Positions 7,335 through 63,785 of a DNA stretch of 64,000 nt are shown in pieces. The DNA is from Acetobacter ghanensis (lineage in GTDB: Bacteria; Pseudomonadota; Alphaproteobacteria; Acetobacterales; Acetobacteraceae). Location: the NCBI RefSeq assembly GCF_001499675.1, contig NZ_LN609302.1, positions 2,513,896-2,577,895 of the forward strand. Direction: 5' to 3'. How positions within the stretch are numbered: the stretch's first letter is position 1; each line of letters begins with the position of its first letter. The translations under genes were made by a program, and so were the position numbers. The notes below the pieces were generated by a model, which saw only the letters and a list, made by a program, of their open reading frames with translations, was not told the origin of the DNA and ran no database searches.

Positions 7335-8831
7335 ATGAGCCTTACAGACCTGCTGGTCATGCTGGCCTATCTGGCGGCCATGCCGGTTGTAGCCCTTGTG
7401 CTGGCGGGCCGTCAGTCCTCCCCCCAAAGCTATCTGGAAGGGCATGGAGACCTGCCGTGGTGGGCCTTGTGCCTCTCACTCGTGGCAACAGAAACCTCGA
7501 CCCTGACCGTTATCAGCGTACCGGGCATTGCCTACGGCTCCGGCATGGTTTTTGTGGGGCTGGCACTGGGCTACCTGCTGGGCCGGTCCATTGTGGCATG
7601 GCTGTTCCTGCCCCTGTACCAGCAAGGTCAGATGCTCAGCGCATATGACTGGCTGGGCCAGCGTTTTGGTGCCCCCATGCAACGGCTTGCATCCGCCACG
7701 TTTCTCATAACCCGGCTGCTGGCCGAGGCCGTGCGCCTGTTTGCAGGCATGTTACCCCTTGCCACCATGCTGGCGGCCATGCACTGGCACCTCCCCCAAC
7801 CCGTGGTGCTAGGCGCCATCATGCTGCTGACCCTGCTTTACACAGTTTGTGGCGGTCTGCGGGCTGTAGTGTGGTCGGACAGTTTGCAGTTCTGCCTGTA
7901 CCTGTCCGGGGCAGCCGCGTGTGTGGGACTACTCTGGCACGCGGCCCCAACGGGCACATGGCATACCCTGCAACAGGCCGGACGGCTGCACCTGTTTGCC
8001 CACCATGCCTCCCTACTGAACAACCCTTTTACCCCTCTGGCGGCCATTGGCGGGGGCGCTCTGCTCTCCGTGGCATCCCACGGCACAGACCAGCTTATGG
8101 TCCAGCGCGTACTGGCGGCTCGCAGCCTGCGCGATGCCCGACTGGCCCTGATGGGCAGCGCCGTGGGAGTGGCCATTCTGTTTGCCCTGCTCTCCCTGAC
8201 CGGCGTGCTGCTCTGGGTGCACAATGGTGGGCGAACACTGGAGCAGGCTGGCTTTTCCGCCCCGGATGCCATTTTTCCCGCCTATATTGTGTATGGCCTG
8301 CCGCCCGGACTGCGTGGGCTTATGCTGGCCGGCATTCTGGCCGCAACCATGGGATCACTGTCCGCCACGCTGTCCGCCATGACCGCCGCCAGTGTGGGAG
8401 ATTTTGCCCCCCTGTGCGCCCGTGCCACCCGCGCCTTACGCTGCACGCCGCTAGGCTTTGCCCGACTGGTCACGCTGGCATGGGCTATGGCGCTGGTTGG
8501 CTGTGCCGGGCTGTTTGCCCATGGCAGCCAGTCCGCCATCATGCTTGGCCTGTCCATTGCCGCATGTGGGTATGGCCCCATGCTGGGCACCTTTGTTGCG
8601 GGCATGGCCATACCCCGCACCACAGCCCGTACGCTGGCCCCTGCCTTTGCCATGAGCGTGCCACTTATGGTGTGGACCATGCTGACGCTACGCCCTTACG
8701 GGCAGGCCCTTGCCTTCCCATGGCTTATCGTGCTGGGCATGGTAGCCCTGTTTGGGTTGGCAGGGTTATTCCATATAATGCACCTTATGTTTTGCACCCT
8801 GCGTGCCCGCAACCGGAAGCCGCTACCATGA
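7335..8831 (+). CDS. Sodium:solute symporter (SSS family), probably for amino sugars
   Basis: A 498-residue polytopic inner-membrane protein with about 13 hydrophobic segments and the SSS-type opening in which the first helix is followed by PWWALCLSLVATETS. It is the first gene of an operon: its stop overlaps the next start as ATGA (8828-8831), followed by a MurNAc-6-P etherase, a sugar kinase and a GH20 hexosaminidase. This context suggests uptake of N-acetylglucosamine, N-acetylmuramic acid or a related sugar; the substrate is inference. The ATG at 7335, preceded by an AGGA site, is chosen over an upstream TTG at 7242 whose extra residues are not membrane-like. Confidence 0.82.
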   Translation: MSLTDLLVMLAYLAAMPVVALVLAGRQSSPQSYLEGHGDLPWWALCLSLVATETSTLTVISVPGIAYGSGMVFVGLALGYLLGRSIVAWLFLPLYQQGQMLSAYDWLGQRFGAPMQRLASATFLITRLLAEAVRLFAGMLPLATMLAAMHWHLPQPVVLGAIMLLTLLYTVCGGLRAVVWSDSLQFCLYLSGAAACVGLLWHAAPTGTWHTLQQAGRLHLFAHHASLLNNPFTPLAAIGGGALLSVASHGTDQLMVQRVLAARSLRDARLALMGSAVGVAILFALLSLTGVLLWVHNGGRTLEQAGFSAPDAIFPAYIVYGLPPGLRGLMLAGILAATMGSLSATLSAMTAASVGDFAPLCARATRALRCTPLGFARLVTLAWAMALVGCAGLFAHGSQSAIMLGLSIAACGYGPMLGTFVAGMAIPRTTARTLAPAFAMSVPLMVWTMLTLRPYGQALAFPWLIVLGMVALFGLAGLFHIMHLMFCTLRARNRKPLP

Positions 8832-9794
8832 CCACTTTGCAGACCCCCAACCCGCTCATCCGCACGGAAATGCAGGACCCGCGTTACGATGGGCTGGACA
8901 CATGGCCCACCAACACCGTGCTGGAAGCCCTGCTGGAAAGCCAGCTTGCCGCCACGGCTTCGGTCAAGGCCGCCCTGCCGGACATGGAAGCCGCCATTGC
9001 ACAGGCCGTGCCCCGGCTGGAACGTGGGGGAAGGCTTTTTTACGTCGGGGCGGGGCACATCGGGCCGCATAGGGTTGCAGGACGGCGTGGAGCTGATTCC
9101 CACCTACGGGTGGCCGTCCGAGCGGCTGGTGCTGCTGCTGGCCGGAGGAGAGGCCGCCCTGTTCAGCCCCGTGGAAGGTGCGGAGGATGATGAGGAGGAA
9201 GCCCAGCGCGCCATAACCAGCCACAACCCCAAGGCGGATGATGTGGTCATTGGCATTGCCGCCAGTGGCGGCACACCCTACACCTGCGCCGCCCTTGCCA
9301 GCGCCCGCTTCTGCGGCAGCCTGACCATTGGCCTGTCCTGCACCCCCGGCGCGCGCCTAATGGCCGAAACCGATGTGGGAATCCTGACTGAAACAGGACC
9401 GGAGGTGGTTGCTGGCTCCACACGCATGAAGGCAGGCACAGCGCAGAAAATCTGCCTCAACCTGCTTTCCACAACACTCATGGTCCGCCTTGGCCATACG
9501 TGGCGGGGGCATATGGTGGACATGCGTATTGTCAACACCAAGCTGGTGCACCGCGCCCTGCGCATGATTACACAACTGACCAACTGCTCCGACGAGCAGG
9601 CGCAGGCGGCCCTGCTTAAGGCGGATGGTTCCATCAAACTGGCCATATTGCTCCGCCACGGGCTGGAACCGGCACAGGGCCGTATGCTGCTGCGCCTGTG
9701 CGATGGCCACCTGCGCAGAGCGCTGGAACTGCTGGCCGTGCAGGCCGCACGGGGCGTTGGCCCTACCGCCCAGCAAAGCCAGACGGTATCCTGA
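8828..9794 (+). pseudogene. murQ: N-acetylmuramic acid 6-phosphate etherase, single-base frameshift
   Basis: MurQ cleaves the D-lactyl ether of MurNAc-6-P to give GlcNAc-6-P in peptidoglycan recycling. The coding sequence starts at 8828 inside an ATGA overlap and reads normally through GGRLFYVGAG, then leaves frame. The rest of the SIS domain (TSGRIGLQDGVELIPTYG, then EVVAGSTRMKAGTAQK) continues in another frame to the stop at 9794. Removing one G from the G4 run at 9052-9055 restores YVGAGTSGRIG, the exact family motif, and a 321-residue protein. As written, translation would stop at 9190. The stop overlaps the next start as TGATG. It may be an assembly error or a real null. Confidence 0.85.
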
Positions 9795-10774
9795 TGGCTC
9801 ATGCGCAAACCATTCTGGCGCTGGATGGCGGGGGCACCCACACGCGGGTTGCACTGATTACGCAGGATGCCCGCGTGCTGGCCCACGCCAACGGGCCAGG
9901 CTGCAACCCCTACGACAGGCCGGAATGGGCGCATAACCTGCGGAACCTGCTGCTAACCGTCCCCCATACGGGCCTATGTGCTGCGGTGCTGGGCATGGCG
10001 GGGTATGATGCAGCCCGACCCTCCTCCCACCAGCAGGTGGACGTGGCCCGCGCCGCCCTTGGCCCCCACATCCCCATAGCGTTGGAAAACGATGTGCAAA
10101 CAGCCCACCGCGCGGCCTTTGCTGGTGGTGCAGGCATTTTTGTGCTGGCTGGCACAGGCTCCGTAGCGCAGGCCAGCACGGCTGATGGGCGTACCGCCCG
10201 CGCCGGAGGCTGGGGCTGGCTGTTTGGAGATGAAGGCGGAGGCTACTGGATAGGCTGCCACGCCCTTAACCATGCCGCCCGCTTTCTGGACGACCCGGAC
10301 GTTCCATTTGCCCCGTTCGCACGTGGGCTGCTCCATGCGCTTGACCTCCCCACGCAGGGAGCTGGCGCGGCAGATGCCCTGCGAGAATGGCTGCGCACAC
10401 GCCCCCACCCACGCTCCGCCGTGGGGGACGTGGCCCCAACGGTGCATATGCTGGCCCATGCGCAGGACCCCCACGCCCGCGCGCTCCTCCATGCGGCGGG
10501 GGACCATCTGGCCAATCTGGCCCGAACGGCCAGCAAAGGCATAACGGCTGACCAAACCTCCACCCTGCCGTGGAGTTATGGTGGTAGCGTTATGAACAGC
10601 CCATTTGTACGCGAGCGTGTTGCCACCATGCTGGAACGCCCCCCGACCGCCCCCATTCTTCCCCCGCTGGGGGGAGCCGCCCTGCACGCAGCCCAACTGG
10701 CCGGATGGCAGGTGGATACGGCATGGGTCCATACGCTGTCCCTCGCGCTCTCGACCCAAAAAATAGCAGCATGA
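9794..10774 (+). CDS. BadF/BadG/BcrA/BcrD ATPase-family sugar kinase (N-acetylglucosamine kinase-like)
   Basis: A 326-residue ASKHA-fold kinase. The phosphate-1 loop is LALDGGGTHTRVAL at the N-terminus, followed by NDVQTAH, the phosphate-2 motif LAGTGSVA and the GWGWLFGDEGGGYWIG stretch typical of NagK/MurK-type kinases in this family. It most likely phosphorylates GlcNAc or MurNAc in the cytoplasm after uptake by the upstream symporter, supplying MurQ with its substrate. Start and stop both overlap neighbours (TGATG at 9792-9796 and ATGA at 10771-10774), so translational coupling is expected. Which amino sugar it prefers cannot be told from sequence. Confidence 0.85.
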   Translation: MAHAQTILALDGGGTHTRVALITQDARVLAHANGPGCNPYDRPEWAHNLRNLLLTVPHTGLCAAVLGMAGYDAARPSSHQQVDVARAALGPHIPIALENDVQTAHRAAFAGGAGIFVLAGTGSVAQASTADGRTARAGGWGWLFGDEGGGYWIGCHALNHAARFLDDPDVPFAPFARGLLHALDLPTQGAGAADALREWLRTRPHPRSAVGDVAPTVHMLAHAQDPHARALLHAAGDHLANLARTASKGITADQTSTLPWSYGGSVMNSPFVRERVATMLERPPTAPILPPLGGAALHAAQLAGWQVDTAWVHTLSLALSTQKIAA

Positions 10775-13039
10775 CCCAATCGTTTTCAAAAAACTTCCAT
10801 CCGAACCCTGCTGCTGTGTGGGCTTGCTCTGGCAGGGGCCACACCCCATACGGCTCTGGCGCAGACCGTGCTGGATGCACGCCAGAACAACCTGCCACCT
10901 ACCTTTGCCCGCAACGGAGTGCGCCTGCCGCAGGTCATGCCCAGCCCTGCCGTTATGCAAAGCACCGGGGCCGCCTTTGCCCTGCCCCAAAGCCTGACCC
11001 TGAAATGGAACACGCCACCCACGCCGCTGCTGCTCCGTGCGGCAGAGCGGCTGCGCACCCGGCTTTCCATCCTTGCAGGCCGCACGGTGGACTTTACCAC
11101 TACACCCGATGCACAAGGCGGGCTTGAGCTCACAATCCAGACCACAAAGGATACGGCATTCCCCGGCCCAACCATGCGGGAAGGCTATATGCTGGATGTT
11201 GCGCCCACCGGCATAACACTCACGGCGCAGGGGCCTGCGGGCGTGCTGCACGGCATGGCCAGCCTGAGCCAGCTTGTACGGCAGGAGCTGGATGGCCCCG
11301 TTCTGGCACAGGCCCATATGGAGGACGCACCGCGCTTTGCATGGCGCGGCCTCATGCTGGACACAAGCAGGCACTTCATCCCGCTAGCGGACCTCATGCG
11401 CCAACTGGACGCCATGGAAATGGTCAAGCTGAATGTGCTGCACCTCCATTTGTCCGATGGCGCAGCCTTTAGGGTGGAAAGCAAAAAATTCCCACGCCTG
11501 CATACCGTAGGCAGCCACGGGCAATATTACACGCAGGACCAGATCCGCCAGCTTGTGCGCGAGGCAGCGGATAGAGGCATACGCATTGTGCCGGAATTTG
11601 ATACGCCGGGACACAGTTACGCCATGCTGCTGGCCTACCCGCGCTATGCCGCCAACCTGCCGCTCAACACCACCGACCGGGCGGAGATCAACCGCGCAGC
11701 ACTGGACCCCACCAACCCGGCAACGGCAGGCTTTGTTAACGCAGTGTACGCGGAGATGGCCTCCCTATTCCCCGACCCTGTATTCCACATTGGGGGGGAC
11801 GAGGTGGTGGCAAAACAGTGGACGCAATCCCCCCATATTGCGGCCTATATGAAGCAGCACCACATTGCGTCGGTCGCGGCCCTACAGGCGGACTATACCC
11901 GCCATGTGGCGCAGGCCCTCCGCCTGCGGGGCAAAACCGTTATGGGCTGGGACGAGGTGCAGGAGGCGGACATCCCGCCTGACACCATTATAGAAAGCTG
12001 GCGTGGCCCCGCCCACACCGCACAGGCCACTGCCGCAGGCCGCGCCACGGTTATATCCGGCCCCTATTATCTGGACCGGCTTCTGCCAGCCAGCGCCTAT
12101 TACACCACCGACCCGATGGATACGCACAAAGGCGCGGCGGAAGCACAGGCCGCGGCACAAACCACCGGCCCCGCCCCGCCCGATACCCCGGTGGCCACAG
12201 CGCCAACACCCGCTGTGCCAGACCAGACGGCGGACGCCCCCCTGCCGCCGCTCAGTGACGCGCAGAAAAGCCATGTGCTGGGGGCCGAGGCCGCTTTGTG
12301 GACCGAAGTGGTCTCGCCCGACATGCTGGATGCGCGCCTGTGGCCCCGTGTTATTGCCGTGGCGGAACGCTTCTGGTCGCCTGAAACATGCTGCGATGTT
12401 GCCACCCTGTACCCCAGACTGGCCATGATGCAGGACCGGCTGAACCTGCTGGGCCTCAAAACCCGTTCCAACACCCTGCGTATGCTGGACCGGCTGGCAC
12501 CGGGGGAAACAGAGGCTGCGGACATTCTGCTCTCCGCCGTCTCACCCGTGCGCAATTACGCGCATAACCATGAATTTTTGCAAATCCGGCACAAGCAGAC
12601 CGCCACCTTACAGCCCCTTGGCACTCCAGCAGACATTGCCAGCCCCGACAGCTTTGAAGCCGAAGCCTTTAATGCCGAAGCGCAGGCCTTTATCAGCGGC
12701 CACACCGAGTTACGCCCGGAGTTGGAGCGGATGTTAATCCTGTGGGCTAATAATGACAGCGCGTTTGAGCGGGCCGCCGCACACAATGCGGGCCTGACAC
12801 CCGCACTGGCGGCCTCCACCCAACTGGCCCGGCTGGCCCGCGCGGGGCTTGCCGCCCTTGGCCCCATCCACCCCCTGAACTGGCGTGAAGATGCGCGGGA
12901 CGCCCTGAATACGGCCAAAAAGGATATTGCCGCCTCGTCCAGCATTCATGTGGTCACCAATACGCCCCAACCGGAAGGGGATCTGATCCAGCGTATTGTA
13001 CCCGGCGTGGAAGTGCTGCTTGATCAGGCCATACCCTAA
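10771..13039 (+). CDS. Secreted beta-N-acetylhexosaminidase, glycoside hydrolase family 20 (frameshift in signal peptide)
   Basis: Hydrolyses terminal beta-GlcNAc/GalNAc. The GH20 catalytic pair is the Asp-Glu in HIGGDEVV (about residues 343-344), with the upstream LHLHLSDG and PEFDTPGHS motifs. An Ala/Pro-rich insert of about 45 residues interrupts the barrel before HVLGAEAALWTE. The natural start is the ATG at 10771, overlapping the kinase stop, but that frame breaks within the A6 run at 10788-10793. Dropping one A yields a classical signal peptide (LLLCGLALAGA, then a TALA-Q cleavage site) joined to the enzyme, 755 residues in total. As written, the first in-frame start is a GTG at 10868, which would produce an unexported enzyme. 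Confidence 0.88.
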
Positions 13040-13066: not shown

Positions 13067-14764
13067 TTACCCCTCCCGTGGCAGACGTTGGACGAGGGCG
13101 TGAATAACCTCTTCCTCGTAATCAAGCTCTTGCTGGAGCTTCCATTCCGTCTGGTCATTAATCTCCTGCCGGGCAACCAGTTCCCGCATGGTCTGCCGCT
13201 CCGCACGCAGAATTTGTAACCGCAGGGCCAGCTCCATACGGGCGTGCCTTATGGCGCTGCGTCGGTCGGCCTGAGCAATACGGGGAGTAGCGTCCTCCTG
13301 CTCCAACCGGCTCTGGTAGAGCCGGGTCAGGCGGTCGATCACCTCCATACGCGCGGCTTCTATAGCCGCCTTGTCCTCCTCCGTTTCTGGCGGGGTTTCT
13401 ATGGCAGGTGTGCCTTCCGCCTTGTGCAGCAGGTCCAGCGCCGCACGCAGCAGCTTCTGCCGGGCCAAGTTTTCTTCCTCTGCGTTTTTGTCCACCTCCT
13501 CGGCGGGCACAAATCTGAGGCACAGGGGGATAACAACACTGGCCACCAGCAAGGAGAGAATAATAACCCCAGCCGCAATAACCACCACCGGCTCACGCGT
13601 GGGGAATGGCATGGTGCCATCCTCCCCCGTGGGCAAAGACAGCACAGCGGCCAGTGTCACCGCGCCGCGTACACCGGCAAAAGTCAGCAATAGGCTGGCA
13701 GCAAGCCCTGTTGGCTCAAACGGAATGTTATTAATCCGCGCCACGGCCCAACGGCAGGCAATGGACAGCCAGACCCCGGCCAGCCGCATAAGCAGCATGA
13801 TGCCGTAAATTTCCACCACCAGCAGGCCAAGCCGCCACATACCAATATGGTGGGCCAGTACCAACGTACGCGCACTTTGCAGCAGGCTAGGCAGTTGCAG
13901 CCCTAAAAACAGAAAGATAAGCGCGTTAAACACGTAGCTGATCATGGTCCACACCGTGGTGGATTGCAGGCGCGTAGTGGTGGATGCGTCCTCTATGATC
14001 CCCGAAAGCTTGATGACCATGCACCCCGCAACGGCTGCCAGAATACCCGAACACCCCAAAGCCTCTGCTGCGGCATAAACCAGAAAAGGCAGCAGCAGCA
14101 CAAACACGATCTGGGACTGTGTCTCATCATACCCGGAGTTGGTCAGCATCTTGTTTAGGCGGGCGGCAACCCATGCCATACACCCGCCAATGGCCAGCCC
14201 GCCAAATGCCACAAGCAAAAACGTGCCAAAAGCCTGCTGGTAGGAGAACTCCCCCGTAAGCGCATCCGCCATGGCAAAGCGAAAACACACAAGGCCCGAG
14301 GCATCGTTAAACAGCGCCTCGCCCGACAGAAGCTGCAACAGCCGCGTGGGCACACGCCTACCCTTGATAAGGCTGGAGACGGCCACCGTATCTGTGGGGG
14401 AGAGCGCCGCCGCCAGTGTAAAGCAGACCGGCAGGCTCATAACCGGCAGAATCCAGTGGATGGCATACCCGCACAGCAGGGTGCTCAGGACCACCAGCCC
14501 AAACGCCAAAAACAGGATAGGCCCGCGCAGCTCACCAAACTCGCGCAGCGGCATACGGAACGCATCCGCAAACAGCAGGGGGGGCAGAAAAACGAACATA
14601 AACAGTTCGGGGTGCAGCCGCACATTCATGCCCGCCAGCCCAGCCCCCACACCCAGCGCAATCAGAATAACGGGTTGCGGAACCTTCTGGCGCAAGCGCA
14701 GGGTTATCAGGCTGCTGACGGCTGTCAGCAGCAACAGAAGCAGGATGAGTTCTATGGTCAGCAT
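13067..14764 (-). CDS. Na+/H+ antiporter, CPA1 (NhaP-like) family
   Basis: A 565-residue inner-membrane protein with about 12 hydrophobic segments that should exchange cytoplasmic Na+ for protons. CPA1 landmarks are FLPPLLFADAF (about residues 59-69), ALSPTDTVAV (120-129) and the ion-binding GEALFNDASGL with the Asn-Asp pair at 153-154, plus TFAGVRGAVTLAAVL near the end of the membrane domain. A charged, Glu/Arg-rich cytoplasmic tail of about 140 residues, probably helical, follows and may be regulatory. It converges with the GH20 gene. A second, unrelated antiporter (nhaA) lies about 10 kb away. Confidence 0.9.
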   Translation of the reverse strand: MLTIELILLLLLLTAVSSLITLRLRQKVPQPVILIALGVGAGLAGMNVRLHPELFMFVFLPPLLFADAFRMPLREFGELRGPILFLAFGLVVLSTLLCGYAIHWILPVMSLPVCFTLAAALSPTDTVAVSSLIKGRRVPTRLLQLLSGEALFNDASGLVCFRFAMADALTGEFSYQQAFGTFLLVAFGGLAIGGCMAWVAARLNKMLTNSGYDETQSQIVFVLLLPFLVYAAAEALGCSGILAAVAGCMVIKLSGIIEDASTTTRLQSTTVWTMISYVFNALIFLFLGLQLPSLLQSARTLVLAHHIGMWRLGLLVVEIYGIMLLMRLAGVWLSIACRWAVARINNIPFEPTGLAASLLLTFAGVRGAVTLAAVLSLPTGEDGTMPFPTREPVVVIAAGVIILSLLVASVVIPLCLRFVPAEEVDKNAEEENLARQKLLRAALDLLHKAEGTPAIETPPETEEDKAAIEAARMEVIDRLTRLYQSRLEQEDATPRIAQADRRSAIRHARMELALRLQILRAERQTMRELVARQEINDQTEWKLQQELDYEEEVIHALVQRLPREG

Positions 14765-20715: not shown

Positions 20716-21856
20716 TCAGGCCTGTTTTCTGGCCCCAACCACAAACCGGCCCGCGCCCAGTACCAGCAGGGCCAGCACGGCAATGCCAGCACTCCACGCC
20801 AGCACCGCATAAGGGCCGGAGCCCCCCAGCACGACCCCACCACACAAAGCCCCCATACCAATCCCCGCCATTAAAGCCGGTTACGCTAAAGGAGCAGGCG
20901 GCCTCCCGCTCATCCGGAGCCAGCTCCATGGCGTAGTTCTGGGGGGCCATGTTCATAAATGCGCTCACAATCCCCCACACAACCATATCCACCCAGATCA
21001 GGCCGGGCATCCACCCTGCGGCCACCATAACCCCGTGGCTGGCAACAAGAGCCGCCGTTGCAATGCCAATAAGGCGGCCGGACGAACAGGGCAGCCGCGC
21101 CCCAACCCAGTTGCCACCAATGCCGGAAACCCCATAAACCAGAAGCAGAACGGGTATAAGATGTTCCGGACTATGCGGAATATCCTGCAATAACGGCACA
21201 ACATAAGTATAGGCGGTAAAGTGCGCGGTAATAACCAGCATGGTCAGCACCGCAATATACGCAAATACCGGCTGACGGAGCAGACGCCGCAGGTCAAGGT
21301 GCCTGCGCTGCGCGGGCATGGCGGGCAAAAGTGCCAGCACGGCGGCAAACACCACCAACGCACTGACACCGCAAACAGCAAAAGCCGCACGCCAGCCCAA
21401 CCACTGCCCAATGGCGGACGCCAGCGGAATACCCGCGGCAAACCCAACAGCCACCCCGCCAAAGGCCCAGCCCGTTGCCCGTGCAACCGGCATATCCGGC
21501 GCCAGCCGGACCGCAACCCCGGCAATAACCGACCAGAAAATACCATGCCCAAACGCCAGTATAATGCGCAACACGGCCATAACGGCATAGTTGGTCACAA
21601 AGGCGCAGGCCACATCCACACACCCGGCCAGCAGTAACAGACCAGCAACAAGCGTGCGCCGGTCCACGCCGGACGTTAACAGGGTTAATGGTATGGCCGT
21701 CACCGCCACCAGCCACGCATACCCCGTAACAAGCAGCCCCGCTTGCCCGGGCGAAACGTGCAGGCCTTGCGCAATGTCGGTCAGCAGACCAATGGGCATG
21801 ATCTCGGTCACAAGCCAGATGAATGTCCCGACCGAGAGTATGACAAGACGTACCAT
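20716..21856 (-). pseudogene. MFS drug/sugar-efflux transporter, frameshifted near C-terminus
   Basis: A 12-helix major facilitator of the arabinose/chloramphenicol efflux (SotB/YdhP-like) type: TEIMPIGLLTDIAQGL after helix 1, then LRIILAFGHGIFWSV and FGGVAVGFAAGIPL. From the ATG at 21856 the frame is normal through SFSVTGFN, then becomes Trp/Gly-rich nonsense that runs on to 20660. Removing one base at the CC of 20868-20869 restores NAGIGMGALCGG, a hydrophobic last helix and a stop at 20716 (379 residues), directly before a strong hairpin. That agreement argues the frameshift is a one-base insertion in this sequence. If real, the last two helices are lost. Confidence 0.82.
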
Positions 21857-22040
21857 GGTGACAAAACCCGACACAAAAAAGGAGTAAAAGCCACCGAGGC
21901 CCTACTATGCCCCACCACCGTACACAACGCTCCGCCGCATAAAGTCTGCTCCAGCTCTACGCGGTGCTCCCAACGGGGCACAAAAAAGGGCTGGCAGACC
22001 TATGCCTGCCAGCCCCTTCATAACCACCTGTAACGGCTGT

Positions 22041-29210: not shown

Positions 29211-30220
29211 ATGGCAACTCAGATTGCGGTCATTACGGGAGCAGGGTCGGGTATTGGCCGTGCGGCAGCCCGTGCGCTGGGGCGCGCAGGGTTTGACGTC
29301 GCTCTGCTTGGGCGTGACAAGGCACGCCTGGAGGCCACGGCGCAGAACCTGGCCCAGCACTCCATCCGCACTCTGGTTGTGAGCGTGGATGTAACCGACG
29401 CGCAGGCCGTGCAGGATGCCGCTGACCATATTGAGGCAGAACTGGGCCCCATTTCCGTCTGGGCCAACTGTGCTGGTGCTACGGTTGTGGGGCAGGTTGC
29501 CGCGTTAACCGCGCAGGACATCCAGCGCGCAACGCAGGTAACCTACCTTGGCAGCGTTAATGGCACACTGGCGGCACTGAATGTGATGCGGCGCAGAGGG
29601 CAAGGGGCTATCATCAACCTTGATCTGGCCCCCACCCTGCGCGACCTGCCCCTGCAAGCGGCAGAAAATGGGTCCCGCGCAGCGTTGCGAGCCTTCTGCA
29701 ATAGCCTGAGAACAGAGCTGCGCCACGATGCGGACCATATTCGCGTTGTTATGGTGGATCTGCCCGCCATTAACACCCCGCATTACAACTGGACCCGCAA
29801 CCTGACCGGCAAGCGCCTCAAACCCTTTGGTCCTGTCTATGAGCCTGAAGTGGCGGCGGAGGCTATCTGCCGGGCGGCCTTTACTACCAGCCGCTCCATT
29901 TCCATTGGCTGGGCCAACAGCTTTGCGGCGCTGTGGCGCTTTGCTGGCCCCGGCTGCCGGGAGGCCCATCTGGCCGACCGGGGTTACAAAGCCCAGATGA
30001 GCCATGACTGGGGCAGACGGCCCCCAGCCCAGATGACCTGTACGAACCCGTACCCGGCGCTTACGGGTCCGAAGGTCCGTTTGAGGCCAAGGCCCGCAGG
30101 CTGAACAGCCCGTTTACGGTTTTTGTCTCATCCGGTCTGCGGGCCAGCCTGTTTGGTGCGTTGGCCGCCATGGGGCTGAGCGCGGTTTTTAACCATATCC
30201 GCCAGTGCCATAAGTCCTGA
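29211..30220 (+). pseudogene. Short-chain dehydrogenase, frameshifted near C-terminus
   Basis: A classical SDR: TGAGSGIGRAAAR cofactor motif at residues 10-22, WANCAGA at the NAG position, and a C-terminal extension beyond the catalytic fold. The canonical catalytic Ser-Tyr-Lys appears weakened (NLDLAPTLRDLPLQAAENGSRAAL lacks a clear Y-x-x-x-K), unusual for the family. The frame is intact through MSHDW, then shifts. Adding one C to the C5 run at 30021-30025 restores PSPDDLYEPVPGAYGSEGPF, a hydrophobic end (ASLFGALAAMGLSAVF) and a stop at 30220, for 336 residues. As written, the protein ends at 30104 with basic, Pro-rich nonsense. Confidence 0.82.
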
Positions 30221-32146: not shown

Positions 32147-32264
32147 ACCCCGACACCTCCCCTTTTGAGAAATACACATGAAGGTGAAGGCATAATGACC
32201 GAATTATAAAAATTAGTTAATGAATTTTTATAGATAATACGCGTTGACGATAAATTAACCCTAT

Positions 32265-32283
32265 GGGCTGGTTAAACCAGCCC
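32265..32283 (-). terminator. Stem-loop at the ispE stop
   Basis: GGGCTGG (32265-32271) and CCAGCCC (32277-32283) form a perfect 7-base stem that overlaps the ispE stop codon. On the minus strand it is followed by AT-rich sequence without a strict T-tract. It probably ends the TPR-ispE transcript. Confidence 0.45.
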
Positions 32284-33176
32284 GCCACCCCACACCCACC
32301 ATGCCGGGTGCGCGTCTTCCAGCCTGTCGGCCGCCTGCCGTGCGGCCTGCGGTGTGGCAAAGATGCCAAAACACGTTGCGCCAGACCCACTCATCCGGGC
32401 CAGCACGCATCCATCCTGCCCGGCAATATCGGCCAGCACATGGCCCACTGGGGGGCATACCACACAGGCTGGCTCTTCCAGACTATTGCCCTGCTGTTTC
32501 AAAAACGTCACCACATCCGCAAGGCTGGACCAGCCATCGGGCATGGTGGCACGCGGCAGAAAATCACCCTCCCGGCGGCGAAACACTTCCGGCGTGGACA
32601 CAGCCTGCCCGCAGTTCACCAACACCATGCCGCATTCCGGCAGGTGGGGGGCCGGAGTCAGGTTTTCACCAATACCTTCCATACGGGTGGTCTGGCTTAA
32701 CAGGCAGACCGGCACATCTGCACCCAGTGTTTCTGCCACTTTAAGCAGGTCCGCCCGGCTGGCCTGCACGTTCCATGCCCGGTCAAGCAGACGCAGGGCG
32801 GCTGCGGCATCGGCCGAGCCACCACCAATGCCAGACGCCACAGGCAGCTTTTTTCCAGCACCAGCCGGCCACCCTGCACATGCGCCTGCGTGCCGCACAG
32901 TTCCTGCAAGGCCCGTGCGGCTTTGAGCACAAGATTATCCGCCCCGGCGGCCGAGGAATCCAGCGCACGGCCGAACCGCCCCGTAATCTCCAGTTGCAGA
33001 GGAGTGGGGCCGGGCTGGTAGTGCAGCACGTCTCCCGCGCCAGCAAACACCACTAGACTATCCAGCAGGTGGTACCCATCTGCCCGCCGACCTGTGACAT
33101 GCAGGTACAGATTGACCTTGGCGGGCGCGGCCTCTGTGAATGCAAAGGTGGAAACGTCCAATGCTGCAACAGTCAC
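32272..33176 (-). pseudogene. ispE: 4-diphosphocytidyl-2-C-methyl-D-erythritol kinase, frameshifted at an A-run
   Basis: IspE is the ATP-dependent fourth step of the MEP isoprenoid pathway, upstream of hopanoids and quinones. From the GTG at 33176 the frame carries PAKVNLYLHVTGRRADGYHLLDSL, then breaks at GRLVLEK. The GHMP-kinase ATP motif PVASGIGGGSADAAAALR and the C-terminal MSGSGATCFGIF lie in a second frame to the stop at 32272. Restoring a seventh A to the run at 32849-32854 (T6 on the plus strand) gives LEKKLPVASGIGGGSAD and a normal 301 residues. The start overlaps the TPR gene stop (GTGA), implying coupling. Since dxs is present, ispE should be essential, so a real lesion is unlikely. 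Confidence 0.88.
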
Positions 33177-41544: not shown

Positions 41545-43587
41545 ATGGACAGTTCTAAAAACCAGAACGCCGCGTCACCGATTCCCACTTTTGGCCGTTT
41601 TCCTGCGCTGGATCGTGTTCGGGTTCCTGCGGACCTGCGCAACCTGTCTGTTGAGCAGCTCAAGCAGCTTGCGGACGAACTGCGGGCCGAAACTGTGGAC
41701 GCGGTCTCCACCACCGGGGGGCACCTTGGGGCCTCGCTTGGTGTTGTGGAGCTGACCGTAGCCCTGCACGCGGTGTTCGACACGCCCGATGACCGGGTGA
41801 TCTGGGATGTGGGCCATCAGGCCTACCCGCACAAGATTCTGACCGGACGGCGCGAGCGCATCCGCACCCTGCGCCAGCCGGGTGGGCTGTCGGGCTTTAC
41901 CCGCCGCTCCGAGAGCGAATACGACCCGTTTGGCGCGGCCCATTCCTCCACGTCCATTTCCGCAGGGCTTGGCATGGCGGTGGCGCACCACCTGCGTGCC
42001 GAGGATGACCCCTCCTACCGTGAACGCAATGTGATTGCGGTGATCGGCGATGGCTCCATCTCTGCCGGCATGGCGTATGAGGCCATGAACAACGCCGCAG
42101 TGGCCGGGCCGGGCGCTGAACGCCTGATCGTGATCCTCAACGATAACGAGATGTCCATTGCTCCGCCGGTCGGGGCCATGTCCAACTACCTCTCGCGCCT
42201 CATGTCGTCGCGCAAATTCATGGAACTGCGCGAACTGGCGGGTAAATTCGTCAAGAAGCTGCCCGCTCCGGTGGAACGCACCGCCCGCAAGGCGGACGAA
42301 TACGCCCGCGGCATGATTACCGGCGGCACACTGTTCGAGGAGCTGGGCTTTTACTACGTTGGCCCGGTAGACGGGCACGACCTGCCGCAGCTGGTCAATA
42401 TCCTGCGCAACCTGCGCGATACGGATAAAGGCCCCATCCTGCTGCATGTGATTACGGAAAAAGGCCACGGCTACCGCCCGGCAGAAAACGCGGGCGACAA
42501 ATACCACGCCGTAGCCAAGTTCAACGTCATTACCGGTGAGCAGAAGAAAGGCCCCGCAGGCCCGCCCAGCTACACCTCGGTGTTTGCGCGTGAACTTGTC
42601 CGCCGTGCCCAGACCGACAAGCGCCTGACCGCGGTTACCGCCGCCATGCCGTCCGGCACCGGGCTGGATGCGTTTGCCAAGAACTACCCCGACCGCTTTT
42701 TTGACGTAGGCATTGCCGAGCAGCACGCCGTAACCTTTGCCGCTGGTATGGCGACCGAAGGGCTGCGTCCGTTCTGCGCCATTTACTCCACCTTCCTCCA
42801 GCGTGCGTATGACCAGGTCATGCACGATGTGGTGTTGCAGAACCTGCCGGTTCGCTTTGCCATTGACCGTGCCGGTCTGGTTGGGGCCGATGGCGCCACC
42901 CATGCCGGGTCGTTCGATATTGCCTATCTGGGCTGCCTGCCGGGCATGACCATCATGGCCCCTTCGGACGAGCTGGAACTGCTGCATATGACAGCCACAG
43001 CCATTGAGTTTGATGAAGGCCCGATTGCCCTGCGTTACCCGCGTGGCAACGGGCTGGGTCTGGACCTGCCTGCCGAAGGGCAGGTGCTGGAAATTGGCAA
43101 GGGCCGCATTATCCGCGAGATGGGTCGCCAGTTTGGGGCAGAAACGGGTGGCATTGCCATTCTCTCGCTCGGGCCAAGGCTTGGCGCGTGCCTGAAGGCC
43201 GCCGACATGCTGGCGGCTCAGGGGCTGCCGCCCACGGTGGCGGATGCCCGCTTTGCCAAGCCGATTGACACCGCCCTGCTGGAAAATCTGGCCCGCAACC
43301 ATGCGGTGCTGATTACCATTGAGGAAGGGTCCGAAGGTGGGTTTGCCACACAGGTCTGCCACCATCTGGCGCGCACCGGTCTGCTGGATCAGGTCCGATT
43401 CCGCCCGATGACCCTGCCCGACCGCTTTATCGACCACAACACGCAGGACGCGCAGTATGACGAGGCCGGGCTCTCCGCTCCACACATCGTCGCAACCGCT
43501 CTTAACGCACTGGGTGTGAGCGCTACGGGCATCGGAGACATGCTCGAAGCAACCTTGTCAAACCGCTCAACCGGGACAAAATCGTAA
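41545..43587 (+). CDS. dxs: 1-deoxy-D-xylulose-5-phosphate synthase
   Basis: Condenses pyruvate with glyceraldehyde 3-phosphate, the first committed step of the MEP isoprenoid pathway (ThDP- and Mg-dependent). The 680-residue protein has [16 protein letters not shown] (ThDP/Mg motif; Gly-Asp-Gly at 168-170), the N-terminal [21 protein letters not shown] stretch (GGHLGASLG), and the pyrimidine domain with [17 protein letters not shown] and [15 protein letters not shown]. It is placed immediately before hpnM (gap two bases), so hopanoid genes and precursor supply appear co-transcribed. Start ATG 41545. Confidence 0.96.
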
Positions 43588-43589
43588 GC

Positions 43590-44243
43590 ATGAAACGTAT
43601 TTCTTTACGCGCAGGGCTTGTGCTTGGCATGAGCATGGCGCTCCTTCCCGTGGTTGGGGCTGGCGTGTCCGCCCCGGCTGCTTTTGCTCAATCCGCTCCG
43701 AACAGCCCGGTTATTGCACCCGTGCAGACGCTCTACAAAGCGCTGGACCAGATCGTGCAGTCCCACGGCAGCTTTGCAGAGCGTAGCCAGATTGTGGCGG
43801 CCGCTGTTGACCAGTCCTATAATCTGGAAGCGGTGCTCAAGGCCTCCATCGGCCCGCGCTACGCTGGGCTGAGCGCTGACGAGAAGCAGAAACTGCTTGT
43901 CGCGTTCAAGGACTATACGGTTGCGCGCTATGTCAGCAACTTCAAGCCCGGTGCGGACGTCAAGTTCACCATCCAGCCCACCGTGACTGACGCCCCTATT
44001 GGCGGTAACAAAATTGTGGTCACCGACCTTGGCGCGAGCGATGGCTCAACCCCGACCGAAGTCAGCTACATCATGAACAATGCTGGCGGGTCATGGAAAA
44101 TTGTGGACGTGCTGCTGAGCGATGCCCGCATCAGCCAGACGGCCGCCCAGCGCGCGGACTTTAGCTCCACGCTCACCTCTGGTGGTGTTTCTGGCCTTAT
44201 CAGCGTTCTTGAACGCAAGGCTCAGGCCTACTCCAAAGGCTAA
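43590..44243 (+). CDS. hpnM: Hopanoid-associated MlaC/Ttg2D-family protein HpnM
   Basis: A 217-residue periplasmic lipid-binding protein of the MlaC/toluene-tolerance (Ttg2D) family, named HpnM when in hopanoid clusters and thought to help move hopanoids to the outer membrane. It has a signal peptide (residues 1-33, ending AAFAQ) and the fold landmarks IVAAAVDQSYNLEAVLKASIG, YTVARYVSNF and GGSWKIVDVLL near the C-terminus. It starts two bases after the dxs stop and precedes hpnI by 74 bases. No partner RND or ABC gene is in the window. Confidence 0.88.
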   Translation: MKRISLRAGLVLGMSMALLPVVGAGVSAPAAFAQSAPNSPVIAPVQTLYKALDQIVQSHGSFAERSQIVAAAVDQSYNLEAVLKASIGPRYAGLSADEKQKLLVAFKDYTVARYVSNFKPGADVKFTIQPTVTDAPIGGNKIVVTDLGASDGSTPTEVSYIMNNAGGSWKIVDVLLSDARISQTAAQRADFSSTLTSGGVSGLISVLERKAQAYSKG

Positions 44244-44317
44244 AGGAACAGGACAAGGCGCGTGCGGCAACGCAAACAGACACCAATCCCCATTACGGGG
44301 CGCATAATGGTTGGGGC

Positions 44318-45493
44318 ATGGTAGCGGTTTTTCCGATTCTGGCAGCTGCCAGCGCGCTTCTTTCTGTTACCGGCTGTATACAGTCCTCGCTGGGGGCTGG
44401 TCTGCTGGCACGCTTCCGCCGCAATGAGCGGCGGCCAGTGGTGCTGGGCAGCACCCCCCCGGTGAGTGTGCTCAAGCCTCTATACGGGTCCGAACCCCTG
44501 CTGGAAGAAGCGTTGGAAAGCTTCTGCACGCAGGACTACCCCCAGATGCAAATCCTGTTTGGTGTGCGCGATGCGGATGACCCCGCCATTGCCGTGGTGC
44601 GCCGCTTGCAGGAACGCCACCCGCATCTGGATATGGAGCTTGTGGTTGACCCCGCCCTGCACGGGCTTAACCGCAAGATCAGCAACCTGATGAATATTCT
44701 GCCCAAGGCGCGGCACGATATTCTGGTTATTTCCGATTCCGACATCCATGTGCGGCCGGACTACTTGCGCCACATTGTCTCGGCCCTGCACCAGCCCAAT
44801 ACCGGGCTTGTCACCACCCTGTATGCGGGCCTACCCGCCAGTGGCTCCATTGTGCAGATGCTGGCGGCCTGCCAGATCAACCACAACTTTCTACCCGGCG
44901 TCATGCTTTCCCGCTATCTGGGGCGGCAGGACTGTTTAGGGGCCACCATGGCCCTGCGGCGCCAAACGCTGGATGAGGTAGGCGGGCTGGAAGCCCTTCT
45001 ACCCCATGTTGCGGATGACGCCCTGCTTGGCAGGCTTGTCCGGCAGACAGGCATGAACATTGCCATTGCCGAATGCATGACATGGACCACCATTGCCGAG
45101 TCCAGCCTTGGCGAGCTGCTCCGGCATGAGCTGCGCTGGGGCCGCACGGTGTGCACACTGGCGCCAGCGGGCTATGCGGCTTCCTCCATCCAGCTTCCGC
45201 TGTTCTGGGCCTCTCTGGTTGTGCTTTTTCAGCCACACGCGGCATGGAGTTTGCCATTCTTCTGGGGCATATGGGCCATGCGTGCCCTTACATCCCTGCT
45301 GATTGACCGCGCCGTGGGCGCTCGCGCACTGTGGCCGCTGCTGCTGCTCCCCCTGCGGGACTGGCTGTCTGCCGCCATTATGGTAGGGAGCGCAAGCGGT
45401 ACGGAGGTCCACTGGCGGGGGCAGACCATGCACATAGCACCCCACCCGCCAGCGGCACCTGCCCCGGTGCGCAGCCTCTCCCCCGGCCCATAG
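44318..45493 (+). CDS. hpnI: Bacteriohopanetetrol N-acetylglucosaminyltransferase HpnI
   Basis: A GT2-family membrane glycosyltransferase that attaches GlcNAc to bacteriohopanetetrol. The 391-residue protein has an N-terminal membrane anchor, the GT-A domain VSVLKPLYGSEPLLEEALES with ISDSDIHVRPDYL (the DxD-type metal site) and the acceptor/base region CLGATMALRRQTLDEVGG, then QTGMNIA and ELRWGRTVCTLAP (the Q-x-x-R-W-like motif), with several C-terminal helices. Context with hpnJ and hpnK directly downstream fixes the role. Confidence 0.92.
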   Translation: MVAVFPILAAASALLSVTGCIQSSLGAGLLARFRRNERRPVVLGSTPPVSVLKPLYGSEPLLEEALESFCTQDYPQMQILFGVRDADDPAIAVVRRLQERHPHLDMELVVDPALHGLNRKISNLMNILPKARHDILVISDSDIHVRPDYLRHIVSALHQPNTGLVTTLYAGLPASGSIVQMLAACQINHNFLPGVMLSRYLGRQDCLGATMALRRQTLDEVGGLEALLPHVADDALLGRLVRQTGMNIAIAECMTWTTIAESSLGELLRHELRWGRTVCTLAPAGYAASSIQLPLFWASLVVLFQPHAAWSLPFFWGIWAMRALTSLLIDRAVGARALWPLLLLPLRDWLSAAIMVGSASGTEVHWRGQTMHIAPHPPAAPAPVRSLSPGP

Positions 45494-45636
45494 CGAACGC
45501 ACGCAAAGGCTTGCCTTCTTCATATGCGCCAGAGTAATTGCCTAAACCAAAGCAGACGGAAGTCCTTGAACCAGCATTTATGCCGGAGCTTACCGTTGGA
45601 CCCCACCGTTCTACGCCCTTGTCAGGATAGAAACCG

Positions 45637-47064
45637 ATGACGATGAGAACCCTTTTTCTCCAGCCGCCAACTTTTGATGGTTTTGATGGCGGCGCAGGCT
45701 CGCGCTATCAGGCACGCCGTGAAATCAAATCTTTCTGGTATCCGACATGGCTGGCCCAACCTGCCGCTCTGGTCGAAGGCAGCCGCCTGATTGACGCGCC
45801 GCCCGCCAACATGGGCATGGAGCCCATTCTGGAAGACGTGAAGAACCGCGATCTGGTGGTACTGCACACCTCCACCCCGTCCTTTGCCAAGGACGTGCAG
45901 GTGGCCCAGATGCTCAAGGACGTTAACCCGAACCTGAAGATTGGTATGGTTGGCGCCAAAGTGGCCGTTCAGCCGGAAGAAAGCCTGCTCAAGGGTGCGC
46001 CCATCGACTTTGTTGCCCGCAATGAATTTGATTACACGATCAAGGACATTGCCGACGGCATGGACTTCAAGGACGTGGACGGCATTACGTGGCGCAACAA
46101 GAATGGCGAAATTGTCGCCAACCGCGACCGCGCCATGATCGAAGACATGGACTCCCTGCCCTTCGTGACCGAAGTGTACAAGCGTGACCTGCGGATTGAA
46201 GATTACTTCATCGGCTACCTCATGCACCCGTACATCTCCATCTACACGGGCCGTGGCTGCAAATCGCGCTGCACGTTCTGCCTGTGGCCGCAGACCGTGG
46301 GTGGCCACCGTTACCGCACCCGCAGCCCGCAGCATGTGGCAGCCGAAATCCGTCTGGCCATGCAGTACTTCCCGCAGGTCAAGGAATTCTTCTTTGACGA
46401 TGACACCTTCACCGATGATCTGCCGCGTGCGGAAGCCATTGCCCGCGAACTGGGCAAGCTGGGTGTAACCTGGTCCTGCAACGCCAAGGCCAACGTCCCC
46501 TATGACACGCTGAAAGTCCTGCGTGACAACGGCCTGCGCCTGCTGCTGGTTGGTTACGAAAGCGGCAACCAGCAGATCCTGCACAACATCAAAAAAGGTA
46601 TGCGCGTTGAAGTGGCGCGTGAGTTCACCAAGAACTGCCACGAACTCGGGATCAAGATCCACGGCACCTTTATTCTGGGTCTGCCGGGCGAAACGAAGGA
46701 AACCATTCAGGAAACCATTCGCTTCGCGCAGGAAATCAACCCGCACACGTTGCAGGTATCCCTTGCTGCTCCGTACCCCGGCACGGCACTGTTCAAGGAA
46801 GCCACGGAAAACGGCTGGCTGGACGAAAGCAACGCCGAGCTGCTGGACGAAAACGGCGTGCAGATTGCACCGCTGCACTACCCGCACCTCTCGCACACCG
46901 AAATCTTCAACAGCGTGGAAGAATTCTACAAGAAGTTCTACTTCCGCGCTCCCAAGATTGCGTCCATCGTTGGGGAAATGGTGCGTTCGCCCCAGATGAT
47001 GAAGCGCCGCCTGCGCGAAGGTGTGGAGTTCTTCCAGTTCCTTAAAGGCCGCAAGGCTGCCTGA
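45637..47064 (+). CDS. hpnJ: HpnJ, B12-type radical SAM protein of bacteriohopanetetrol cyclitol synthesis
   Basis: Converts the glucosaminyl headgroup of bacteriohopanetetrol glucosamine into the five-membered cyclitol ether by ring contraction. The 475-residue protein has a B12-binding-like N-terminal domain (residues about 1-150) and a radical SAM barrel whose cluster ligands are Cys208, Cys212 and Cys215 (GRGCKSRCTFCLWPQ). The C-terminal half carries FILGLPGETKETIQETI and a long tail to residue 475. It is followed by hpnK. Confidence 0.95.
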   Translation: MTMRTLFLQPPTFDGFDGGAGSRYQARREIKSFWYPTWLAQPAALVEGSRLIDAPPANMGMEPILEDVKNRDLVVLHTSTPSFAKDVQVAQMLKDVNPNLKIGMVGAKVAVQPEESLLKGAPIDFVARNEFDYTIKDIADGMDFKDVDGITWRNKNGEIVANRDRAMIEDMDSLPFVTEVYKRDLRIEDYFIGYLMHPYISIYTGRGCKSRCTFCLWPQTVGGHRYRTRSPQHVAAEIRLAMQYFPQVKEFFFDDDTFTDDLPRAEAIARELGKLGVTWSCNAKANVPYDTLKVLRDNGLRLLLVGYESGNQQILHNIKKGMRVEVAREFTKNCHELGIKIHGTFILGLPGETKETIQETIRFAQEINPHTLQVSLAAPYPGTALFKEATENGWLDESNAELLDENGVQIAPLHYPHLSHTEIFNSVEEFYKKFYFRAPKIASIVGEMVRSPQMMKRRLREGVEFFQFLKGRKAA

Positions 47065-50181: not shown

Positions 50182-50305
50182 GACGGTGGACTTACCCGCC
50201 ATAAATGGTGGCTGCCCCCGTGGCAGGCTCTAGGCATGGCGGGCCGCCTCTGCTAGTCAGCTAGGCGAACGTTCAACCTGTACGCGACTGGCCTGCTGCA
50301 TTGGC

Positions 50306-61142: not shown

Positions 61143-61218
61143 ACATTGTCGCGCTAATGAAACGGACGGAGCGGATGACAGCAATAGAACCTGTTCTGCG
61201 TCAAGCGCAGCCCTTTTG

Positions 61219-62907
61219 TCAGGCTGCTGCCGTGGTTTCTCCCAACTGAGCCAAAGGCTGCATCAGCAGGTGGTTGTGGGAGTAGTCAACCGGCACGGCA
61301 ATAACCACCGGCCCTTCCACGTCCATGGCCTCCCGCAGAGCCTGACGCACCCCATCCTCCGTGGTGGCCGTAATGCCTTTTGCCCCGCAGGCTTCTGCAT
61401 ATTTTGCAAAATCAATCGGACCAAAATGCACGCCCGACCCACGGCCGTATTTTTTCTGTTCCTGAATTTCAACCATGTTGTAGGCCTGATCAATCCAGAC
61501 CATATGGATCAGGTTGCACTTCAGGCGCACGGCTGTTTCCAGCTCCATGCTGGACATCATGAATCCGCCATCGCCAGAAATTGAAACAACTTTTTGCGAG
61601 GGGTTCACAAGGCTGGCGGCAATCCCCCACGGCAGGCCCACGCCCATGGTCTGCTGGCCGTTGCTGATCAGCACCTGACGGGCACGGAAGGACAGCAGGT
61701 AACGGGCCAGCCAGATGTGGAAGGTCCCCATATCCAGACACAGGGTCATATCCGGGGTTACAAACTGTTCCAGCTCACGCACGATCTGGAGCGGATGCAC
61801 GGCGGAGTTGCTGCTGCTACGCGCATCCAGCAGAGCAGTGCGGCGGGCTTTTTTATACCCTTCCAGCACGGCTTCCAGTTCTGGCGCGCGGGCAAGACCA
61901 CCCGCCTTGCCACCCAGCCCTTCAAGGGTCAGTGCAATGTCACCAATCAGTTCAATGGCGGGTACAAAAGCGTTGTCCAGCTCGGCGGGAACAATATCAA
62001 CATTAATAATCTGGCGGGCGTCATTCACGTTCCACAGCCACGGGTCATATTCCACCGGGTTGTAGCCCACGGCCACCACCACATCGGCCTCGTGGAGCAG
62101 CTGATCACCATGCTGGTTGCGGAACAGGCCAATACGGCCGCCAAACCGGTCCACCAGCTCTTCCGACACCGCACCAGCGGCCTGATATGTGCCCACAACC
62201 GGCACGCCTGTCAGTTTAACAAAGGCGCGCACGGCATCGGCCACGTCCGGGCGGCTGGCCAGCATACCCAGCAGCATGACCGGACGTTTGGCTTTTTTAA
62301 GCAGCGTTGCGGCCTCGGCCACCACATCCGCCGGAGCGCCACCCATACGCGGAGCCAGACGGTCGGCCAGAACCGGCGCATTGGCAGGCATGGACAGCAC
62401 ATCCATGGGCGTGCTGACAAATGCTGCACCCGGCCGCCCACTTTCTGCAAAGCGGAAGGCATTGGCCATAACTTCCGAAATGGCGGTGGGAGTGGTCAGC
62501 TCCACGCTGTATTTGGTTACGGGGCGGAACAGGCTGACCGTGTCCATGGTCTGGTGGGTCAGCTTAAGCCGGTCGGCCAGCTTGACCGCGCCACCAATGG
62601 CCAGAACGGGGTCGCCTTCGGAATTGGCTGTGGCCAACCCGGTTACAAAATTGGAAGCACCGGGGCCGGATGTTGCAATGCACACCCCTGCCTTGCCGGT
62701 AATGCGGCCAAGGCCACCAGCAATAAAGGCGGCGTTCTGCTCATGCCGGGTCACTACGGTTTCGATCGAGGAATCGACCAGTGCATCAAACAGCCGGTCC
62801 ACCTTGGCGCCGGGAATACCAAACACATGGGTAATGCCATGCGCTTCCAGATTTTTGACAATAAGCTCCGCACCGCATTGTGCGGTGGTGTCTGCCGTTT
62901 TTGACAT
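61219..62907 (-). CDS. alsS: Acetolactate synthase (catabolic type)
   Basis: Condenses two pyruvates to 2-acetolactate and CO2 (ThDP). The 562-residue protein has VTRHEQNAAFIAGGLGRITGK (catalytic Glu), SGPGASNFVTGLATANSEGDPVLAIGG, and the ThDP motif GDGGFMMSSMELETAVRL. It lacks a separate regulatory subunit, and pairing with alsD argues for the AlsS rather than the biosynthetic IlvB role. The ATG at 62907 follows alsD by 96 bases. Confidence 0.94.
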   Translation of the reverse strand: MSKTADTTAQCGAELIVKNLEAHGITHVFGIPGAKVDRLFDALVDSSIETVVTRHEQNAAFIAGGLGRITGKAGVCIATSGPGASNFVTGLATANSEGDPVLAIGGAVKLADRLKLTHQTMDTVSLFRPVTKYSVELTTPTAISEVMANAFRFAESGRPGAAFVSTPMDVLSMPANAPVLADRLAPRMGGAPADVVAEAATLLKKAKRPVMLLGMLASRPDVADAVRAFVKLTGVPVVGTYQAAGAVSEELVDRFGGRIGLFRNQHGDQLLHEADVVVAVGYNPVEYDPWLWNVNDARQIINVDIVPAELDNAFVPAIELIGDIALTLEGLGGKAGGLARAPELEAVLEGYKKARRTALLDARSSSNSAVHPLQIVRELEQFVTPDMTLCLDMGTFHIWLARYLLSFRARQVLISNGQQTMGVGLPWGIAASLVNPSQKVVSISGDGGFMMSSMELETAVRLKCNLIHMVWIDQAYNMVEIQEQKKYGRGSGVHFGPIDFAKYAEACGAKGITATTEDGVRQALREAMDVEGPVVIAVPVDYSHNHLLMQPLAQLGETTAAA

Positions 62908-63003
62908 TGTAGAAAAACCTCGGATCAAGGTGGGCTACCGGGAAACAAAGCGCACAGCAGCCCAACACCATTCAGAAAAAAAACAGGTTAGCCCCAGAGA
63001 ACG

Positions 63004-63785
63004 TCAGCCACCTTCGGCAATGCGAATGGCCTCACTCAGGCTTTCGGGGTTCAGGTTGGCCTGCGCAAACTGCTTGGTGCGCGGCAACTGCACCTGAAGG
63101 TCAGAAATTGTTGCAACTTCCAGCATACCCTTAACAATTTTGTATTCCGTAACATGCCCACCACGTTTGTGATCTTCGGACAGGAAGTGCAGGTGATACC
63201 CCGCCACGTTCACGCCCTGCATGTACACTGGGGTGCGGAAGCCGATCATGGTTCCACTGACCGATTCCATAGTAAAAGTCGGCTGTTTTTTAACAACTTC
63301 CAGCATATGGGGGTATGGCTTGCACTGGCAGAACACCGTGCGGGTATCCACCCGCTCGAACAGGCCGGTAAAGCGCACGGCACCAAACAGGTTGGGGTTG
63401 CCCAGAAGCTGGTCCACCAGCGCTTCAAAACTTTCCTTATCCTTGGGCGTATCGACCGTCACATTTTTTCGGGTTCAAAATACGTCACGCAGGCAAAAGG
63501 TGTTTTAAGGGAGCCGGGCACTTCCGCCGCCAGCCCTTCCGCACGGAACTGGCGCACAACGCCATCCGTTACAATCATCTCCCCATCAAGGGAGTTAAAG
63601 GTGCCAAGGCCAAAGTTGCCGTGCTGGAGCAGCTCATCCAGCGTGGTTTCGCCATCGTACACCGCATCCAGCAGAGCGGCCATGGTGGAGGTCTGATAAA
63701 GACGGTTGATCGGAGGCTTGCCAGAAACTCCGTTACCCAAGGCAGAAGACCGTAGGTCCATATCCGCCACTGGCTGCTTTACCAT
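63004..63785 (-). pseudogene. alsD: Acetolactate decarboxylase, frameshifted at an A-run
   Basis: AlsD converts 2-acetolactate to acetoin. The frame from the ATG at 63785 (with GGAG site eight bases upstream) encodes the N-terminal domain (YQTSTMAALLDAVYDGE; FACVTYFEPEK) and then meets a stop. The C-terminal domain, including the zinc-ligand region YHLHFLSEDHKRGGHV, is in another frame to 63004. A seventh A in the run at 63464-63469 (T6 on the plus strand) gives FEPEKNVTVDTPKDKESF and a 260-residue AlsD. As written, the enzyme is split and inactive, or the sequence is wrong. Confidence 0.87.

What the first reader, a model, noticed from the sequence alone, without database searches (positions are those of the whole stretch)
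8828..63785. Six single-base frameshifts, nearly all at homopolymers
murQ (G4 at 9052), GH20 (A6 at 10788), MFS (CC at 20868), SDR (C5 at 30021), ispE (A6 at 32849) and alsD (A6 at 63464) each become full-length and family-typical after exactly one base is added or removed. ispE should be essential because dxs is present. The pattern is more like uncorrected indel error than six independent gene losses; real slippage-prone runs remain possible. Anyone annotating the genome would otherwise lose these genes.
Basis: partly seen in the sequence, partly recalled or inferred. Interest (0 to 1): 0.75.

Follow-up and report, generated by a model that had tools for sequence, protein, structure and literature searches.

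The report
Sequencing slips that break bacterial genes
Six ordinary genes of what is probably a cocoa-fermenting vinegar bacterium look broken by tiny one-letter slips that are most likely sequencing errors in the public genome, and slips of the same kind may explain several enzymes that were reported as missing from that strain.

Summary
The six genes are out of frame in the window and keep one frame in nearly all syntenic Acetobacter relatives aligned. One correction: SDR carries two single-base insertions about 18 bases apart, not one deletion; a near-identical intact protein fits only that reading. Six is not the genome's total: the neighbouring 160 kb has 4 more broken genes among 101 compared (A. 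fabarum: 0 of 110 by the same rule), and directed searches found small lesions in pntB, proC and glpD. ispE is the only ispE locus, no HMG-CoA reductase was found, yet an intact IspE equal to both window pieces outside the run is on record. The genome is very probably A. ghanensis LMG 23848T (GCA_001499675), apparently sequenced by 454. Published gaps for that strain (no AlsD though acetoin is made; proC with an internal stop though it grows without amino acids; no PntB; no GlpD) coincide with these lesions. Best explanation: uncorrected indel errors in the assembly. Not a biological feature, but a useful correction. glpD (G7, G8 in relatives) is the one that could be real, because that strain does not grow on glycerol. 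Raw reads were not available.

The parts
8828..9794 (+). murQ (N-acetylmuramic acid 6-phosphate etherase), broken; one extra G in G4 at 9052-9055
   Evidence: 5 of 5 aligned relatives one base shorter; NF003915 above cut-off on the second piece
10771..13039 (+). GH20 beta-N-acetylhexosaminidase; start and signal peptide out of frame with the body, lesion between 10771 and about 10806 (A6 at 10788)
   Evidence: (PF00728)
20719..21874 (-). MFS transporter, last ~50 residues out of frame; one extra base near 20868
   Evidence: 6 of 6 relatives one base shorter; PF07690
29211..30220 (+). SDR family oxidoreductase, C-terminal ~65 residues out of frame; two single-base insertions, in G4 at 30010-30013 and C3 at 30028-30030
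   Evidence: 6 of 6 aligned relatives; NF005495 above cut-off
32272..33176 (-). ispE, broken; T6 at 32849-32854, one base short of the frame kept in relatives
63004..63794 (-). alsD (acetolactate decarboxylase), broken; T6 at 63464-63469, one base short of relatives
   Evidence: 6 of 6 aligned relatives; TIGR01252 on both pieces, each below cut-off
61222..62928 (-). alsS (acetolactate synthase), intact, next to alsD
   Evidence: TIGR02418, NF006378
41545..43587 (+). dxs, intact; marker of the MEP pathway
   Evidence: TIGR00204

Best explanation
The six frameshifts are consensus errors of the assembly, not gene losses. The genome is very probably the Acetobacter ghanensis LMG 23848T record GCA_001499675, apparently made by 454 pyrosequencing, which miscounts runs of identical bases; wrong run lengths stayed in the consensus and split otherwise normal genes. 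Shown: the frames break in the window and are kept in nearly all aligned relatives; more genes are hit outside the window; near-identical intact IspE and SDR proteins are on record. Inferred: that those proteins are from the same species, the strain identity, the sequencing method, and that the cell's own genes are intact.
For: Relatives keep one frame at the six loci, save SDR and GH20 in the MAG-like G005. P0001 (IspE, 301 aa; a 90% cluster standing for 13 contigs, longest 625,555 bases) equals both window pieces except at the run and the GTG start; P0121 (SDR, 335 aa, same longest contig) equals the window outside the stretch between the two insertions. Neighbouring 160 kb against A. fabarum: 12 of 101 genes showed a frame change; 4 kept (G000:C1 about 2398700, 2469260, 2476783, 2504055), 7 dropped because one segment lacked a coding signature, 1 dropped as a doubtful 98-aa ORF. 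Reverse: 8 of 110 A. fabarum genes, all 8 dropped for lack of the signature. A. lambici re-shows 3 of the 4 (the fourth lies outside its stretch); reverse 5 of 52 rows, all dropped likewise. ispE and alsD are single loci, split only here, whole in 5 of 5 relatives; HMG-CoA reductase in 0 of 6 genomes. Identity: 2,843,651 bases here, 2,843,474 listed for LMG 23848. Published for that strain: no AlsD though acetoin is formed; proC with internal stop though it grows without amino acids; PntB and GlpD not found; here alsD, pntB, proC and glpD carry small lesions. A sister paper of the group points to 454.
Against: No reads were seen. Identity is inferred; 177 bases of size difference are unexplained. 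454 use is second-hand; Illeghems 2016 was not read. For murQ the best listed protein is 93% alike, so no near-identical intact copy was seen (it could be hidden inside a 90% cluster); MFS, GH20 and alsD were not searched that way. The strain is said not to grow on glycerol, which would fit a real glpD defect. MFS lies at CC, and two of the four neighbouring lesions are extra bases outside any obvious run. Lesion density differs between the window (6 of 49) and its neighbourhood (4 of 101).
Confidence: 0.92

Rival explanations
1. Real recent mutations: the sequenced culture truly carries the frameshifts, for instance as a mismatch-repair-deficient mutator or through relaxed selection in culture.
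For: Mixed +1/-1 changes at short runs are what slippage without repair would give; 4 of the 6 genes (murQ, MFS, SDR, ispE) keep a coding signature on both sides of the break, so any real loss is recent; no growth on glycerol fits glpD.
Against: ispE is the only locus and no HMG-CoA reductase was found; acetoin formation and growth without amino acids are reported for the presumed strain. mutS and mutL were not examined.
Confidence: 0.05
2. Slippage-prone runs whose length differs between cells (contingency loci), or that are read through by slippage of polymerase or ribosome.
For: ispE and alsD lie in six-base T runs that are longer in most aligned relatives; glpD lies in a run of G8 in 5 of 5 relatives.
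Against: Most runs here have 2 to 6 bases, short for such mechanisms (recalled); SDR has two separate insertions; near-identical intact IspE and SDR proteins show the plain full-length frame.
Confidence: 0.03

Closest known systems
Homopolymer indel errors in 454 and other unpolished assemblies (recalled kind; PMC3277595 abstract)
   Same: Single-base indels, many in runs, in unrelated genes, also upstream of genes (two window-specific deletions at 50295 and 50302 upstream of a start)
   Different: Some events sit in runs of one or two bases; SDR has two within 20 bases
Recent pseudogenes in a type strain
   Same: Frame broken, rest of the gene well kept
   Different: Includes a single-copy gene of the MEP pathway and genes whose products are implied by published phenotypes
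Phase-variable homopolymer tracts
   Same: A change of run length switches the frame
   Different: Runs mostly too short; only the glpD G8 run looks like one

Membership tests
Assembly indel errors | Near-identical intact copies elsewhere, equal outside the lesion | tested here: met
   ispE and SDR; not seen for murQ (best 93%); MFS, GH20, alsD not tested
Assembly indel errors | Lesions spread over the genome, not confined to one region | tested here: met
   4 of 101 neighbouring genes; pntB, proC, glpD by directed search
Assembly indel errors | Genes the cell should need are hit too | tested here: met
   ispE single locus, no HMG-CoA reductase, dxs present; need itself is established knowledge, not tested
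Assembly indel errors | Raw reads disagree with the consensus | not testable with these tools
   no reads held
Assembly indel errors | Excess at homopolymers | tested here: inconclusive
   Most window events lie in runs of 3 or more, which hold 18.5% of window bases, but assigning an indel to a run is biased; the conserved-run tally was not informative
Pseudogenes | Relaxed constraint in the broken gene | tested here: not met
   Third-position excess on both sides of the break in the 4 genes that one search covers (murQ, MFS, SDR, ispE); GH20 and alsD not covered
Phase-variable tracts | Run lengths mixed within one culture | not testable with these tools
   no reads held

The most novel reading that the evidence does not exclude
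Most lesions are errors, but the glpD G7 run (G8 in 5 of 5 relatives, in the N-terminal GGGVNGTG stretch) is real and switches glycerol use on and off, which would explain the reported failure of the type strain to grow on glycerol.
Probability: 0.15. Interest if true: 0.4.

Novelty: not a real feature. Interest (0 to 1): 0.33.

Why it matters
If the identity is right, this assembly is the reference used in published metabolic and metatranscriptomic work (GCF_001499675.1). A metabolic model of LMG 23848T reports AlsD, PntB and GlpD as missing and proC as interrupted, and suggests other routes to acetoin and proline; an earlier paper with the same reference reports an expressed acetolactate decarboxylase gene. 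A split alsD in the reference would reconcile the two. Extrapolating the neighbouring stretch (4 of 101) to a genome of roughly 2,500 genes, on the order of a hundred genes could be affected (inference).

Tried and rejected
Rejected: six independent gene losses; a one-base loss in SDR at C5; asparagine synthase as another error (TIGR01536 above its cut-off in 0 of 6 genomes, so probably a true absence in this group). Not informative: the conserved-run tally; plasmid similarity for naming the strain; paper searches for the accession LN609302 (one paper, not opened), DSM 18895 (0 papers) and Acetobacter with frameshift and homopolymer (3 papers, unrelated by title and abstract); passages in PMC9379143 and PMC7889782. 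The first relatives search used window 30269-32179, which I took for dxs and which is not.

Weaker counts left out of the argument. One search, one-base indels unique to one genome among aligned gene units, alignment noise at gene ends included: window 16, G005 14 (in 37 kb), G022 7, G006 6, G016 6, G046 6, G020 0; sister genomes share indels, so this favours a high count for the lone window branch., raw clusters of frame change: window 8, G006 2, G020 5, G046 5, G016 2, G022 3, G005 16. Of the window's 8, 4 rest on one query and were dropped; of the control clusters outside G005, six are seen from two or more genomes (G006 26629 and 40202, G020 6637, G046 5532 and 38982, G022_b 1016). I take only G006 26629 for a real break and judged the rest to lie at gene starts or on the antisense strand without checking each. 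alsD was missed by the rule and rests. In one search the kept row at 114782 also has a third segment without coding signature. The Fisher tests used hand-entered round denominators and are not relied on. Detection in the 160 kb rests mainly on one relative and may miss lesions near gene ends. Not examined: mutS, mutL, D-lactate dehydrogenase, ornithine cyclodeaminase, the mevalonate pathway beyond HMG-CoA reductase.

Full report
What was checked. The window is G000:C1:2513896-2577895 of a 2,843,651-base genome in three contigs. Named relatives at one locus of the window are Acetobacter lambici, A. syzygii, A. lovaniensis and an uncultured Acetobacter; equal contig lengths tie G006, G016 and G046 to the first three, and G020 to A. 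fabarum (inference). 58.8 to 60.4 kb of the window align to each of five relatives, and 39.1 kb to a sixth (G005), at about 84% DNA identity.

Observation. Frame breaks at the six genes were seen directly, by protein matches from relatives and by DNA alignment. murQ and MFS carry one base more than the aligned relatives (5 of 5 and 6 of 6); alsD one base less (6 of 6); ispE has T6 where four of five aligned relatives have T7 or T8 and the fifth an interrupted run, and these five keep one frame; SDR has one base more at each of two places than 6 of 6. In GH20 the window is the one sequence of six whose first ATG is out of frame (by eye; the script picked a later ATG for G022 and G005). In G005 SDR and GH20 are broken at other places.

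SDR. P0121 reads HDWADGPQPDDLY where the window reads HDWGRRP and then, in the other frame, PSPDDLY, as two insertions predict.

Control count: 7 of 49 units short in the window, of which 4 are lesions; A. lambici 1 of 49, A. fabarum 0 of 49, A. lovaniensis 0 of 49, A. syzygii 4 of 48, G022 2 of 49, G005 11 of 33. The A. lambici row, in the antiporter unit, looks like a true break (also, seen from six genomes).

Beyond the window. Of the 160 kb before the window, 121 kb align to A. fabarum. Four genes of 101 are broken by single bases, two extra and two missing; by eye they look like scpA, an amidohydrolase, an amidase and an aldehyde dehydrogenase (recalled motifs, no family search). A. fabarum has 0 of 110 by the same rule. 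The density is lower than in the window.

Near-identical intact copies. IspE P0001 and SDR P0121 are full length and share the same longest contig, 625,555 bases, which is not a contig of G000. Both stand for 90% clusters (13 and 3 contigs), and their source names are hidden, so species and strain are inferred. For murQ the best hit is 93% alike.

Essentiality. One ispE locus, split; no HMG-CoA reductase in 6 of 6 genomes; dxs present, twice. That ispE is needed follows from established knowledge of the MEP pathway.

Identity and literature. PMC13209655 lists A. ghanensis LMG 23848, GCA_001499675, at 2,843,474 bases (one passage seen). PMC9729256 (passages and section 17 seen) says of this strain: no acetolactate decarboxylase although acetoin was formed; proC annotated with an internal stop although it grew without amino acids; the transhydrogenase beta subunit missing; no glycerol 3-phosphate dehydrogenase and no growth on glycerol. 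In G000, alsD is split; pntB is split by one extra base; proC has an in-frame stop just before its body, the exact change not worked out (its body matches TIGR00112 over 1-263); glpD has G7 where 5 of 5 relatives have G8. Asparagine synthase, also reported missing, is above cut-off in none of the six genomes. Two further reported gaps were not tested. PMC7920976 (passages seen) reports an expressed acetolactate decarboxylase gene in A. ghanensis with this reference. PMC5946041 (two passages seen) describes 454 pyrosequencing 'as described previously', citing the A. ghanensis genome paper (Illeghems 2016), which I did not read. Of PMC3277595, on 454 and Illumina errors, I saw the abstract.

Conclusion. 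Consensus errors explain the set with probability about 0.92. Shown: breaks, relatives, intact near-identical IspE and SDR, lesions outside the window. Inferred: species of those proteins, strain, method, intact genes in the cell.

Noticed in passing
41545-43587 and G000:C1:1729030-1730987: dxs is present twice at 94% DNA identity; in five of five relatives contigs end inside it, which suggests near-identical duplicate copies there too. Possible gene conversion.
   Followed up: partly
39899-47061: Hopanoid genes (HpnH, HpnJ) lie on either side of dxs.
   Followed up: no
13070-14764 (orthologue in L070 near 6629): The Na+/H+ antiporter unit is intact here but frameshifted in the A. lambici assembly.
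   Followed up: partly
50295 and 50302: Two window-specific one-base deletions 7 bases apart, upstream of the ATG of a small ORF, against 6 of 6 relatives.
   Followed up: partly
L092, L093 (G005): MAG-like assembly with 11 of 33 gene units short; probably error-rich too.
   Followed up: no
30272-32179: 636-aa ORF with no NCBIfam match at E 1e-10; up to 25 partial matches in other genomes of the genus.
   Followed up: no
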